This document shows positions 5,076 to 9,799 of a stretch of DNA of 64,000 nt, in pieces. A program made the position numbers and the translations under genes. The notes beneath the pieces are model-generated. The model saw nothing but the letters and a program-made list of their open reading frames with translations, ran no database searches and was not told the origin of the DNA. The number at the start of each line of letters is the position of its first letter. The stretch's first letter is position 1. The DNA comes from an uncultured Alphaproteobacteria bacterium (lineage in GTDB: Bacteria > Pseudomonadota > Alphaproteobacteria > UBA11222): NCBI GenBank assembly GCA_947258435.1, contig CAMYID010000023.1, forward strand, positions 1 to 64,000. Direction: 5' to 3'.

Positions 5076-5585
5076 TTGGCTGGAGTGTGGTTGATATCCC
5101 AAGTAGCCTTTCTCACACGGATAGTTCAGGTGGAGTGCTATTTGTTTCTTCTAAACAATAAATATGCGAGATCCCATAAACAGCTTTATCAAAAGCGAGG
5201 AAATGCGGTCCCGATCTTTGATATATCAGAGAAGCAGCTACGCTCCTCTGTCAACGAAGACTGGCAAAAAATGGAAGGTGGAGCGCTCGTTTGCGTGGTC
5301 GGCGAATCATTGAAGATGAGCACGATTTACAGAATAGAGCACATTGACACCGTGGACCATGACGAAGAGTTCGGAGATCAGTTCGTTGTATGGGGCGACT
5401 TAGTAGCGAAATTTGTTAACGAACTCTCGTACACCTCGATGCTCAACAAACATAGCGTCAATCACCCTCGCCTGAGGGACAACAAATTCCCAATTGGATT
5501 CAACGTCGCTGATTTAGGAAAACAAATGAGTTCCGTCGAGGTCAGGACAAGAGATGGCGTAATCACTTTAGGTAGTCTTGAGTAG
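5076..5585 (+). CDS. Hypothetical protein (start uncertain, possibly 5'-truncated)
   Basis: 169-aa ORF in the accessory island, TTG start only; no family recognised. Confidence 0.5.
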   Translation: MAGVWLISQVAFLTRIVQVECYLFLLNNKYARSHKQLYQKRGNAVPIFDISEKQLRSSVNEDWQKMEGGALVCVVGESLKMSTIYRIEHIDTVDHDEEFGDQFVVWGDLVAKFVNELSYTSMLNKHSVNHPRLRDNKFPIGFNVADLGKQMSSVEVRTRDGVITLGSLE

Positions 5586-5590
5586 ACACT

Positions 5591-6133
5591 TTGAATATCG
5601 ACGCCCTCCTGACCGAGTTACTAGAACCAAAAGCGCCCGCTTCTGAAGCGGAAAAGGTAGTACCTGATCGAAACGGGTACTACTCAATTCATCTAACCAA
5701 TCCTAAAGGTCTTGAAGCTTGGGTGGCGAACCACATTGCCGATCACAAGATCATTTACCTAGGCATTGCGACAAACTCTTTGAATCGACGTCTCACTCGA
5801 CAGGAGTTGAGGCACAAAAGTCCTGCGACCTTTTTCAGGAGCCTTGGGGCTCTTCTAGGGTATCGCCCTCCCGTGGGTTCCCTAATCGGGAAAGCGAATC
5901 AGCGAAATTACAGATTTACCAAGGACGATACGCAAAGCATTATTGAGTGGATCAACAACAATCTGGCTATATCTTGGTTTGTTGACGAAATACCGTCGCA
6001 GGTCGTTGAGCGAGAACTAATTGGAAAACTAAAACCGATAATCAACATCGCGGGAAACCCTTCACCACTACCCGGATTGTCGAAGTTGCGCAGCGAATGT
6101 AGAGCAATTGCTTGTGGGGAACAAAGGAACTAG
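5591..6133 (+). CDS. GIY-YIG nuclease-like protein
   Basis: GYYSIHL...KIIYLGIATNSLNRRL...ERELIGKLKPIINIAGNPSP pattern; TTG start. Confidence 0.7.
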   Translation: MNIDALLTELLEPKAPASEAEKVVPDRNGYYSIHLTNPKGLEAWVANHIADHKIIYLGIATNSLNRRLTRQELRHKSPATFFRSLGALLGYRPPVGSLIGKANQRNYRFTKDDTQSIIEWINNNLAISWFVDEIPSQVVERELIGKLKPIINIAGNPSPLPGLSKLRSECRAIACGEQRN

Positions 6134-6135
6134 TT

Positions 6136-7191
6136 ATGTCGCTTCGTATTGACCTCTGGGAAGCAAACAACAATCAGTTAAAAGCTGTCCCCACATCCGA
6201 GCTAGACTTTGAACAACGTCTCGAGGACTGGTTAGCGAAAGACCCCAGTTTGTCCGGGATGGACGTCTTGATTATTGGCAGACAGCTTCAAACCACTTTT
6301 GGCGGTCGTATAGACCTTCTGGGAATCGATTCTCAGGGCAACACAGCTCTATTCGAATTGAAGAAAGGTCGAACTCCTAGGGATGTGATCGCACAGGTGC
6401 TTGATTACGCGACTTGGGTGAAAGACCTAACGTACGCTGACCTTGATGGATTCTGTTCAAAATTCAACGGTAAAGATCTATCCACGGCGTTTAGAGACCA
6501 CTTTGATGACGCCGTACCCGACACAGTAAACGCCGCCCATACCTTGGTCGTTGTTGCACCTGAACTTGACGATTCATCAGAACGTATCGTCGAGTATTTG
6601 GCGGAGGAGGCAGGACTTGCGATTAACGCCGTGTTCTTCAACACGTTTAAGCATGGAGACACCGAACTGCTTGGCAGGGCGTGGCTAAAAGATCCCGTTG
6701 ACGTTGAAGAAAAGCGTGAGTCAAAGAAACAAGCACCTTGGTCGGGATACTGGTTCGTCAATGTTGGAGAAGGAGATCATCGCAACTGGGATGATTGCCG
6801 CAAGTATGGGTTTCTTGGTGCTGGACAAGGCGAAAGATACTCACGCCCACTAACGAAACTGCGAGTAGGCGATCAGGTTTTTGCTTATATGAAAGGCATT
6901 GGCTATGTGGGTTACGGTGAAGTCACATCTGAAGCGAAGATGATTAAGGATTTCTCGGTTGATGGGTCACCTTTACTTGAAATGCCACTTCAAGCGGAAA
7001 GACCTTGGGAAAACAAGGAAGATCCAAAACTGTCTGATTGGGTGGTTGGAATCAAGTGGGTGAAGTCTGTCCCTCGCGATGAAGCGCGAACGTTCAAAGG
7101 AGCCTTTGCTAATCAAAACATCGTCTGCAAATTAAGACACCCGGAGACGGTGTCTTTCTTGGAGAGAGAGTTTGGTGTGAATCCAAACTAA
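6136..7191 (+). CDS. NucS/DUF91-like PD-(D/E)XK nuclease with C-terminal EVE/PUA-like domain
   Basis: RIDLLGIDSQGNTALFELKKGRTPRDVIAQVLDYATWV nuclease motif; C-terminal WSGYWFVNVGEGDHRNWDDCRKYGFLGAGQG...GDQVFAYMKGIGYVGYGEV. Confidence 0.8.
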   Translation: MSLRIDLWEANNNQLKAVPTSELDFEQRLEDWLAKDPSLSGMDVLIIGRQLQTTFGGRIDLLGIDSQGNTALFELKKGRTPRDVIAQVLDYATWVKDLTYADLDGFCSKFNGKDLSTAFRDHFDDAVPDTVNAAHTLVVVAPELDDSSERIVEYLAEEAGLAINAVFFNTFKHGDTELLGRAWLKDPVDVEEKRESKKQAPWSGYWFVNVGEGDHRNWDDCRKYGFLGAGQGERYSRPLTKLRVGDQVFAYMKGIGYVGYGEVTSEAKMIKDFSVDGSPLLEMPLQAERPWENKEDPKLSDWVVGIKWVKSVPRDEARTFKGAFANQNIVCKLRHPETVSFLEREFGVNPN

Positions 7192-8272: not shown

Positions 8273-8295
8273 CGGTTGTGCATAATAGACAACCG
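8273..8295. promoter_or_regulatory. Perfect 7-bp inverted repeat CGGTTGT-GCATAATAG-ACAACCG, possible operator over a CATAAT -10
   Basis: Located 27 bp before the start of the 8322 ORF, with a -10-like hexamer in the loop. Confidence 0.5.
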
Positions 8296-8321
8296 AACGC
8301 CCAATTTAAACGGGAGCAAGA

Positions 8322-8543
8322 ATGCCCAGATACTACATCTACGAAAATTGGCAAGCTGGACCTCATAAAGCAGTAGTCCATATAGGCAGCTGTGGTTATT
8401 GCAATGAGGGTAAAGGACGAGCGGGTGGTTATGACCCTGCACACGCTCGTTGGCATGGTCCTTACGAGACTCTGGAGCTTGCGAGGTCGCAACAATCGCG
8501 TTTGCCGGTTGCTGAACGTAAAGAATGCAGGTGCGTCAGATAA
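8322..8543 (+). CDS. Small Cys/His-rich protein of unknown function
   Basis: MPRYYIYENWQAGPHKAVVHIGSCGYCNEGKGRAGG...WHGPYETLELA...ECRCVR; GGGAGC RBS. Confidence 0.7.
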   Translation: MPRYYIYENWQAGPHKAVVHIGSCGYCNEGKGRAGGYDPAHARWHGPYETLELARSQQSRLPVAERKECRCVR

Positions 8544-8966
8544 GTGGGCTCCCATGACGACTATGGAAAGCGTGTGCTGCGTGCGGCAGCCGGGAACAAT
8601 TGCGATGTTTACGGACCATCGGTCGAAATAAATTTGGGAGCAGGAAATCCAGCCAGAATTGATGGAACTGTGGGTGACACCATAGCTGTAGAGATAGAAT
8701 CTCGTACTTCTAAGCAAATCCGGGGTGCGGTACTGGACCTTCTTTGTCATTCTTACCCGAAGAAATTGTTAGTCCTGTTGCCGGTTCACATGAGTAATCC
8801 TCAAGTTGCTGCAGACCAATGCAATTTCCTCTTTGGGAAGTTCTTGGACCGCGATGATTACCGCGTGATTGTGCTAGACGGGCATGGGCAACAAGAAGCG
8901 CTTGAAGCTGACACGGTCAGGCTGCAAGTCGCAATAGAATCGCTTCTTACCCGTAGACCGGACTAA
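8544..8966 (+). CDS. PD-(D/E)XK-like restriction-endonuclease-type protein
   Basis: GTG directly abuts the stop of the preceding ORF; core ARIDGTVGDTIAVEIESRTSKQIRGAVLDLLCHSYPKKLLVLLP. Confidence 0.6.
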   Translation: MGSHDDYGKRVLRAAAGNNCDVYGPSVEINLGAGNPARIDGTVGDTIAVEIESRTSKQIRGAVLDLLCHSYPKKLLVLLPVHMSNPQVAADQCNFLFGKFLDRDDYRVIVLDGHGQQEALEADTVRLQVAIESLLTRRPD

Positions 8967-9799
8967 TGGAGCAGACGACTCCGGAAACTGTCTTTCGCGT
9001 TTTTGATGAACTCGAGTATGCAAACGACTTCGTCCAGAGAGGAATCATTCGGCTTGGCAGGCTAGACACGTACAAGAGGATCGAAGACGCAGTCAGAAAA
9101 GACTCTTCGGAAGGCAACATCGCTAAGACCGACGATTTGGTGTGGAATACGGTGGTCGATGTTCACCGAGACTCCTACCTATTAAAGGAAGAATACCGTC
9201 AGGACTTTCTGCGATCTGTCGGGGAAGTCAGAGAAGAGACGGATGATTCCATTGCGAAGTTAAAGAACAAACTTCGGAGACTGCAAAAGGACCGGGCAAG
9301 GGTCGAGGAAACTCTCGCCAAATTTGAAACAGATATTTTGCTCAGGAAGACTTCCGCCGATCCCAAGCTAATGCGATCGAACCTCAATAGCGAGAGGGAT
9401 CGGGTCGGTCAGGAGCTAGAAGCCACCAAAGCGGAAATCGAGTGGAAGGAAGCACAGAAAAGCTGGGTAAATTGGCTGGGTAGGTTTAATTCCGAGATTG
9501 AACAGAAGAACACTCTCACGGATGAGGAGAAGAAAGAGTACTTAGCCCAGATTGTCGAAGAGATCCGGGTCTATTTTGATGAAGAAGCTAATCGCCACAA
9601 TCTTGAGATAGAATTTAAAGTGCCAATCGTCGGAGATGAGATCATCTACAAAGACCCGAAACGAAAGGCAAAGGGATGGACGATCCAGAGAGGTGAAACC
9701 GTCCTTCCCGTTCAAGAACTGGAGCTTTCTAACCGGGGAAGACCTCGGCTAAAAAAGCAGGAAACGGATGGAAAGAAAAAACCATCCGTTCGGAATTAA
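8966..9799 (+). CDS. Apparent chimeric ORF: N-terminal ~50 aa of an unrelated island protein joined to a serine-recombinase coiled-coil/C-terminal region
   Basis: VFRVFDELEYANDFVQRGIIRLGRLDTYKRIEDAVRKDSSEG followed by recombinase-like TDDLVWNTVVDVHRDSYLLKEEY...coiled coil...YLAQIVEEIRVYFDEE. Confidence 0.6.
   Translation: MEQTTPETVFRVFDELEYANDFVQRGIIRLGRLDTYKRIEDAVRKDSSEGNIAKTDDLVWNTVVDVHRDSYLLKEEYRQDFLRSVGEVREETDDSIAKLKNKLRRLQKDRARVEETLAKFETDILLRKTSADPKLMRSNLNSERDRVGQELEATKAEIEWKEAQKSWVNWLGRFNSEIEQKNTLTDEEKKEYLAQIVEEIRVYFDEEANRHNLEIEFKVPIVGDEIIYKDPKRKAKGWTIQRGETVLPVQELELSNRGRPRLKKQETDGKKKPSVRN
9763..9790. repeat. Hairpin AACGGATGG-AAAGAAAAAA-CCATCCGTT at the right end of the island
   Basis: Same stem as 4784-4809, inside the 3' end of the 8966-9799 ORF. 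Confidence 0.85.

What the first reader, a model, noticed from the sequence alone, without database searches (positions are those of the whole stretch)
5076..9118. Nuclease-rich cargo resembling an undescribed defence cassette
Within about 4 kb: a GIY-YIG protein, a NucS-like nuclease with an EVE/PUA-like C-terminus (a domain class that can read modified bases), a DUF6946-like protein with a VEGKV motif, a Cys/His mini-protein and an abutting PD-(D/E)XK-like protein. No methyltransferase is present. That suggests modification-dependent or type IV-like restriction, or independent small nuclease systems. The combination with the hairpin element matches no defence system I can name.
Basis: partly seen in the sequence, partly recalled or inferred. 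Interest (0 to 1): 0.75.

Follow-up and report, generated by a model that had tools for sequence, protein, structure and literature searches.

The report
Nuclease cargo of glmS-tail mobile element
The nuclease genes are probably separate DNA-cutting defence genes carried by a small, apparently undescribed family of mobile elements that insert exactly at the end of the essential gene glmS and recur in distantly related bacteria.

Summary
The nuclease-rich cargo is real, but it is not one conserved defence system. GIY-YIG and DUF6946 are firm. The NucS-like/EVE-like protein matches the PADLOC candidate family PDC-S11 and keeps its catalytic D/E/K. The Cys/His protein has distant relatives. The last "PD-(D/E)XK" protein is unproven. 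The genes do not travel together elsewhere.

What recurs is the carrier. Window 4779-9817 is an insert starting one base after the glmS stop codon. Distally it ends in a copy of the glmS tail (SVTVE*), just inside which lie 15-bp inverted repeats; a same-genus genome lacks the insert. At its left end is a small protein ("recL"), the DNA-binding domain of a serine recombinase without the catalytic part. recL homologues sit beside glmS in 12 further genomes (Alphaproteobacteria, one Gammaproteobacterium, one Acidobacteriota), often stacked in arrays separated by glmS-tail copies. Cargo differs each time and is often a nuclease: MrcB-like/NucS-like fusion, NgoFVII-type enzyme plus cytosine methyltransferase, weak HNH hit.

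Best reading: variable, largely defensive cargo on an integrase-less glmS-tail element family. The NucS-EVE protein is a plausible single-gene modification-dependent nuclease. Mobility and phage defence are inferred, not shown.

The parts
2958..4778 (+). glmS, the target gene; its last codons SVTVE* are the left copy of the tail repeat
   Evidence: ORF and sequence; 90% DNA identity to glmS of same-genus genome G001
4761..4778 (+). left glmS tail TCGGTGACGGTGGAATAG
4782..4796 (+). left terminal inverted repeat CGAACGGATGGTTTT, part of a hairpin 4785-4809 (ACGGATGG..CCATCCGT)
   Evidence: 15/15 match to 9778-9792; hairpin matched twice with 0 expected in the window; DNA fold z -5.0
4781..5041 (+). 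recL: DNA-binding 'Recombinase' domain of a serine recombinase without the catalytic domain
   Evidence: PF07508 9e-7, above cut-off; homologues beside glmS in 12 other genomes; dN/dS about 0.10 against L096; AF2 pLDDT 82, helices resemble Bxb1 integrase (E>1)
5076..5585 (+). cargo ORF of unknown family, TTG start
   Evidence: no hit in Pfam/PADLOC/NCBIfam or plasmids
5591..6133 (+). GIY-YIG nuclease-like protein
   Evidence: PF20815 4e-30
6136..7191 (+). NucS_C-type PD-(D/E)XK nuclease with C-terminal EVE/PUA-like domain (PADLOC PDC-S11)
   Evidence: 1e-128; invariant D60/E74/K76; weak match to NucS 2vld around the catalytic region (E 0.9)
7188..7871 (-). DUF6946 protein, probable PD-(D/E)XK core (D85, E102xK104)
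   Evidence: PF22187 3e-88; conserved residues
7960..8230 (.). strongly structured stretch with a 36-aa Arg-rich ORF (8104-8214)
   Evidence: RNA fold z -5.8; no credible Rfam match and no plasmid relative
8322..8543 (+). Cys/His mini-protein (73 aa)
   Evidence: distant homologues in G046 and Bradyrhizobium p186_1, both without the other cargo genes
8544..8966 (+). 140-aa ORF, claimed PD-(D/E)XK; unproven orphan
   Evidence: no homologue; AF2 model pLDDT 47
8966..9799 (+). composite ORF: N-terminal ~50 aa of phrog_13198, then a serine-integrase-like C-terminal coiled coil reaching into the right inverted repeat
   Evidence: phrog_13198 1e-7, phrog_95 'integrase' positions 423-586, 1.6e-8
9778..9792 (-). 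right terminal inverted repeat, overlapping hairpin 9764-9789
9800..9817 (+). distal glmS-tail copy TCGGTCACTGTGGAATAA, still coding SVTVE* with three synonymous differences

Best explanation
Window 4779-9817 is one member of a family of small integrative elements that insert at the last base of glmS. Each member carries a small protein (recL) derived from the DNA-binding domain of a serine recombinase, lying at one end and reading inward. Typically there is also a distal mimic of the glmS 3' coding tail (short SVTVE*, or longer DQPxxLxxxxTVE*), and in three sequenced cases short terminal inverted repeats. Shown by sequence: the site, the recurrence, purifying selection on recL, the tail copies, variable cargo, and stacking into arrays. 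Inferred: recL binds the tail and/or inverted repeats and directs insertion or excision by an enzyme supplied in trans; the mimic makes the distal end a new target, so elements stack. The nucleases in this window are cargo. The most likely active defence gene is the NucS-EVE protein, acting alone: its EVE-like domain reads a modified base and the PD-(D/E)XK domain cuts that DNA, so no partner methyltransferase is needed. GIY-YIG, DUF6946 and the rest are probably independent or auxiliary nucleases, not subunits of one system.
For: Insert against empty site: in same-genus G001, glmS is followed directly by the oxidoreductase gene that lies at 10766-11719 in the window. Tail copies and inverted repeats in the window. 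recL search of 276 alphaproteobacterial genomes: 9 genomes match besides our own, 8 of them directly downstream of glmS, the ninth (E=0.009) not. A scan of 85,488 genomes gave 5 strong relatives, all beside glmS, including a Gammaproteobacterium whose DNA is 86% identical to the window over a 326-bp alignment running from within glmS to the end of recL and then diverges, and an Acidobacteriota contig. G129 and the Acidobacteriota contig share 83% DNA identity over 357 bp ending at the tail copy. Perfect 14-bp inverted repeats in G129 and L100. Tail motif downstream of 13 glmS genes: 12 on the coding strand, 0 on the other, shuffled mean 1.6 and maximum 7. recL dN/dS about 0.10, 0.24 and 0.09 in three diverged pairs. 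Cargo elsewhere: MrcB_N plus NucS_C fusion, NgoFVII-type REase plus C5 MTase in one element, HNH (weak) and UDG-like. NucS-EVE; precedents PMC7641849, PMC7897488.
Against: No excision, circular form or same-species polymorphism was seen; the empty site comes from one same-genus genome. No integrase was found in or near any of these elements. Several arrays carry small secreted proteins of no evident defence role (L090, L091), so defence is not the rule. The EVE call is below Pfam's cut-off. Some contigs end soon after recL, so their cargo is unknown (L088, L092, L096). The window's two tails match at 15 of 18 bases only. The distal mimics in arrays are partly degenerate.
Confidence: 0.68

Rival explanations
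1. The genes form one multi-gene modification-dependent defence system.
For: Three genes on one strand are closely spaced at 5076-7191. Elsewhere in the same genome a PDC-M57B protein, a DUF6884-like protein and another protein with an EVE-like C-terminus are adjacent.
Against: Homologues of DUF6946, NucS-EVE and the mini-protein occur without the other cargo genes in every locus examined. DUF6946 is on the opposite strand.
Confidence: 0.1
2. The element is the decayed remnant of a serine-integrase island: recL and the 8966-9799 C-terminus are the two broken ends of one integrase gene, with cargo inserted between.
For: recL matches phrog_95 positions 265-309 and the right-hand ORF matches 423-586 of the same model. 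The right-hand ORF is clearly composite.
Against: recL recurs alone, intact and under purifying selection, at glmS in 12 other genomes. Six of the nine carrier genomes searched have no resolvase catalytic domain. The one full serine recombinase in this genome is unrelated to either end.
Confidence: 0.15
3. Tn7-like transposition: a Tn7 relative placed the cargo at attTn7.
For: Same target gene; Tn7's TnsD binds the glmS 3' coding end (PMC2918618).
Against: Tn7 inserts about 20 bp past the stop with a 5-bp duplication (PMC2918618). Here the junction lies at the stop and the glmS tail itself is repeated. No Tns-like gene turned up among the ORFs examined, though TnsABCD models were not searched genome-wide.
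Confidence: 0.05
4. recL is an ordinary host gene of the glmS operon, and the region downstream is only a passive hotspot.
For: recL lies immediately after glmS in 10 of 13 loci; in L090/L091 its ATG overlaps the glmS stop.
Against: It is sporadic (10 of 276 genomes at E<=0.01, own included) and no recL follows glmS in the examined relatives G001-G005. It occurs at the far end in the opposite orientation in G129, L099 and L100, in tandem copies in L090, L091 and L100, and is 90% identical between an alpha- and a gammaproteobacterium.
Confidence: 0.07

Closest known systems
EVE-nuclease modification-dependent restriction enzymes (VcaM4I EVE-HNH; predicted EVE-PD(D/E)XK and EVE-GIY-YIG fusions)
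   Same: Putative PUA/EVE-type reader fused to a nuclease in a single protein, no methyltransferase partner
   Different: Nuclease is of NucS_C (DUF91) type and EVE is C-terminal; EVE score is below Pfam's cut-off; activity untested
PADLOC PDC-S11 (unvalidated defence candidate)
   Same: Full-length profile match 1e-128; 53% identity to a Priestia plasmid protein
   Different: Here carried on a glmS-tail element; candidate status only
Tn7 and Tn7-like transposons at attTn7
   Same: Safe-haven target at the 3' end of glmS; TnsD reads the coding end
   Different: Junction at the stop codon, repeat of the glmS tail, no Tns genes seen, recL instead
Large serine recombinases
   Same: recL resembles their DNA-binding Recombinase domain (PF07508; Foldseek to Bxb1)
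   Different: No catalytic resolvase domain; 85-110 aa stand-alone protein
Genomic islands that integrate into the end of a conserved gene (e.g. SGI1 relatives at trmE)
   Same: Target gene end reconstituted, direct repeat at the far end, defence or resistance cargo
   Different: Elements down to about 0.7-1.3 kb, no tyrosine integrase in the element, inverted repeats inside the tail copies, stacking in arrays
Integron gene-cassette arrays
   Same: Tandem small units with recombination-site-like boundaries and variable cargo
   Different: Units carry recL and a glmS-tail mimic; no cassette-type attC identified; the integrase gene was not specifically searched for

Membership tests
PADLOC PDC-S11 | Full-length profile match | tested here: met
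   1.1e-128, residues 4-351 against profile 1-356 of 358
Type IV / modification-dependent restriction enzyme (EVE-nuclease) | Intact nuclease motif | tested here: met
   D60/E74/K76 invariant in 7 homologues
Type IV / modification-dependent restriction enzyme (EVE-nuclease) | Modified-base reader domain | tested here: inconclusive
   EVE 13.7 bits, below the cut-off of 23
Type IV / modification-dependent restriction enzyme (EVE-nuclease) | Cuts only modified DNA | not testable with these tools
   needs biochemistry
GIY-YIG nuclease superfamily | Profile match over the catalytic domain | tested here: met
   PF20815 105 bits
PD-(D/E)XK nuclease (ORF 8544-8966) | Fold and catalytic motif conserved in relatives | tested here: inconclusive
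   no relatives; model pLDDT 47
DUF6946 | Pfam match above cut-off | tested here: met
   295 bits against 27
Large serine recombinase (recL) | Catalytic resolvase domain | tested here: not met
   absent from recL; PF00239 absent altogether from 6 of 9 carrier genomes
Large serine recombinase (recL) | Recombinase DNA-binding domain | tested here: met
   PF07508 above cut-off for the window and several homologues
Tn7-like transposon | Insertion about 20 bp past the glmS stop with 5-bp duplication | tested here: not met
   junction at the stop; 18-bp tail repeat; PMC2918618
Tn7-like transposon | TnsABC(D) genes | not tested
   not searched genome-wide; none seen among the ORFs examined
Integron cassette array | Integron integrase and attC sites | not tested
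   only total numbers of PF00589 proteins were counted

The most novel reading that the evidence does not exclude
A new class of minimal, integrase-less mobile element: an orphan serine-recombinase DNA-binding protein plus inverted repeats plus a mimic of the glmS coding end, mobilised in trans, stacking at glmS like cassettes and spreading restriction nucleases between bacterial phyla.
Probability: 0.35. Interest if true: 0.85.

Novelty: new variant of a known kind. Interest (0 to 1): 0.7.

Why it matters
If right, glmS in alphaproteobacteria and beyond is a docking site for a family of very small cargo elements that the paper searches made here did not bring up. recL would then be a ready marker for finding new restriction and defence genes, much as integrases mark islands. 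The family also poses a direct question: what enzyme moves an element whose only conserved protein is a recombinase DNA-binding domain. The NucS-EVE protein is a testable single-gene candidate against phages with modified DNA.

Tried and rejected
recC (ORF 8966) hits in viral contigs L003/L004 and genome G130 were judged chance coiled-coil matches: the viral loci carry only phage-type genes there. recL alignments A2 and A3 were too diverse for the genome scan, so a two-sequence alignment was used. Viral-contig scans for the cargo proteins found nothing; recL is absent from phage and plasmid records. The recL search in viral contigs hit other serine recombinases, not glmS elements. PF07508/PF00239/PF00589 searches of carrier genomes revealed no shared candidate integrase. 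The AF2 model of the 140-aa orphan was too poor to use. Mini-protein and 140-aa ORF were not found together in G046. Literature searches found nothing on glmS-tail elements of this type, but only open-access PMC papers were searched.
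Full report
WHAT IS IN THE INTERVAL. ORF calls confirm the reading frames. In order: recL (4781-5041), an orphan ORF (5076-5585), a GIY-YIG protein (5591-6133), a NucS_C/EVE-like protein (6136-7191), DUF6946 on the minus strand (7188-7871), a structured stretch with a 36-aa Arg-rich ORF, a Cys/His mini-protein (8322-8543), a 140-aa orphan (8544-8966), and a composite ORF ending in a serine-integrase-like C-terminus (8966-9799). Family scans: GIY_YIG_2 105 bits, DUF6946 295 bits, NucS_C 20.1 and EVE 13.7 bits, the last two below Pfam's cut-offs. 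PADLOC places the NucS-EVE protein in its candidate family PDC-S11 at 1e-128. The insert has about 45-54% G+C against about 53-62% in the flanking genes.

ACTIVE SITES. Aligning seven NucS-EVE homologues leaves D60, E74 and K76 invariant. The claim for the 140-aa ORF could not be tested: it has no relatives and a poor model.

ONE SYSTEM OR MANY GENES. DUF6946 occurs in 8 of 395 alphaproteobacterial genomes and in a few plasmids, and none of those neighbourhoods held another cargo gene of the window. NucS-EVE relatives sit in plasmids of Priestia, haloarchaea, Klebsiella and Providencia, again without the others. The mini-protein occurs without them in a Bradyrhizobium plasmid and in G046. So the gene set is not a conserved module.

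THE CARRIER. The same-genus genome G001 has glmS followed directly by the oxidoreductase gene that lies at 10766-11719 in the window, so about 6 kb was gained here. Of this, 4779-9817 is bounded by a direct copy of the glmS tail. The left copy is TCGGTGACGGTGGAATAG (4761-4778), the right copy TCGGTCACTGTGGAATAA (9800-9817). All three differences are at third codon positions, and both differences between the two copies in G129 are too, which suggests the distal copy came from a glmS gene rather than from a decaying duplicate. Just inside lie 15/15 inverted repeats (4782-4796 and 9778-9792), each part of a hairpin that was not expected even once in the window.

RECURRENCE. recL carries the Recombinase domain (PF07508) and no catalytic domain. 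A search of 276 alphaproteobacterial genomes found matches in nine genomes besides our own; eight lie immediately downstream of glmS, while the ninth (E=0.009) does not. A scan of 85,488 genomes returned five strong relatives, all next to glmS. One is G129 again. The others are a Gammaproteobacteria MAG (90% protein identity; 86% DNA identity over a 326-bp alignment that starts within glmS, runs to the end of recL, and then stops), a Rhodospirillaceae MAG, an Acidobacteriota MAG, and a marine alphaproteobacterial single-cell genome with at least four recL copies in a row. Each of these contigs carries its own divergent glmS (44-61% identity to the window's), so the association is not a binning artefact. 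Taxon names are those in the record titles.

ANATOMY. In ten loci recL follows glmS directly. In three (G129, L099, L100) it lies at the far end and reads inward. Distal glmS-tail mimics occur in the window, G129, L090, L091, L093, L099 and L100. Counting the motif downstream of 13 glmS genes gives 12 on the coding strand and none on the other; shuffled sequence gives 1.6 on average, at most 7. Perfect 14-bp inverted repeats bound the G129 element and the last element of L100. In L093 the mimic is the last codons of the element's own cytosine methyltransferase (NQPTDLEKMVTVE*). recL is under purifying selection (dN/dS 0.10, 0.24 and 0.09 in three diverged pairs). Its predicted fold (pLDDT 82) gives the integrase Bxb1 among its best Foldseek hits, though none is significant.

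CARGO ELSEWHERE. G129 carries an MrcB_N plus NucS_C fusion, again a putative modified-base reader joined to the same nuclease type. L093 carries an NgoFVII-type endonuclease and a C5 methyltransferase in one 2.8-kb element, with a second C5 methyltransferase beyond it. L099 carries a protein with a weak HNH match, L100 a UDG-superfamily protein, L089 a weak replication-protein match, L090/L091 small secreted-looking proteins. Nucleases and restriction genes are thus frequent but not universal.

HOW IT MOVES. No element examined encodes an integrase. Six of nine carrier genomes have no resolvase domain at all, and one has only two tyrosine recombinases, the number expected for XerC and XerD. 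The only full serine recombinase in the window's genome resembles neither end. Inference: an enzyme acting in trans or lost afterwards, with recL as the site-recognition factor. This step is not shown.

HOW THE CARGO WORKS. The best single candidate is the NucS-EVE protein as a modification-dependent nuclease. EVE-PD(D/E)XK, EVE-HNH and EVE-GIY-YIG fusions are predicted to be type IV enzymes (PMC7641849), and the EVE-HNH enzyme VcaM4I is proven to flip and sense 5mC/5hmC (PMC7897488). PDC-S11 is a PADLOC defence candidate of unvalidated status (PMC12813430). Partnership with the upstream GIY-YIG gene is possible but unsupported.

NOVELTY. The individual cargo genes are new members of known families. 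The carrier family did not turn up in the open-access literature searched. It differs from Tn7 in junction, repeat and genes (PMC2918618).

Noticed in passing
L073 (window's own genome, contig C24) 7117-9308: A second nuclease/EVE locus beside a tRNA-like sequence and a transposase-like ORF: a PDC-M57B protein, a DUF6884-like protein and a 210-aa protein whose C-terminus is 33% identical to the EVE part of the window's NucS-EVE.
   Followed up: partly
window 7960-8230: Strongly structured stretch (RNA fold z -5.8) with a 36-aa Arg-rich ORF; no credible Rfam match, no plasmid relative.
   Followed up: partly
window 9818-9988 and 10597-10767: A 171-bp direct repeat (84%) flanks ORF 9972-10574 (minus); the first copy begins on the base after the distal glmS tail, so a second insertion may sit exactly on the mimic.
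   Followed up: no
L093 6203-7540: A type II cytosine methyltransferase whose last codons are the glmS-tail mimic, i.e. a recombination-site-like sequence forms the protein's C-terminus.
   Followed up: yes
L100 5070-10688: Array of at least four recL copies downstream of glmS in a marine single-cell genome, with tail copies at +2076, +4839 and +5552 and a UDG-like protein.
   Followed up: partly
L089 1897-2379: A REP_ORF2/G2P-like (HUH replication) protein, weak match, follows recL at glmS; a possible clue to the mobilisation route.
   Followed up: no
L020 4001-4126: Unannotated relative of the Cys/His mini-protein in Bradyrhizobium plasmid p186_1, within 3 kb of a recombinase-like HTH protein (PF20552) and a tyrosine integrase.
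   Followed up: partly
window 8966-9799: ORF joining the first ~50 aa of phrog_13198 to a serine-integrase-like C-terminus: a fusion or deletion scar at about 9116.
   Followed up: partly
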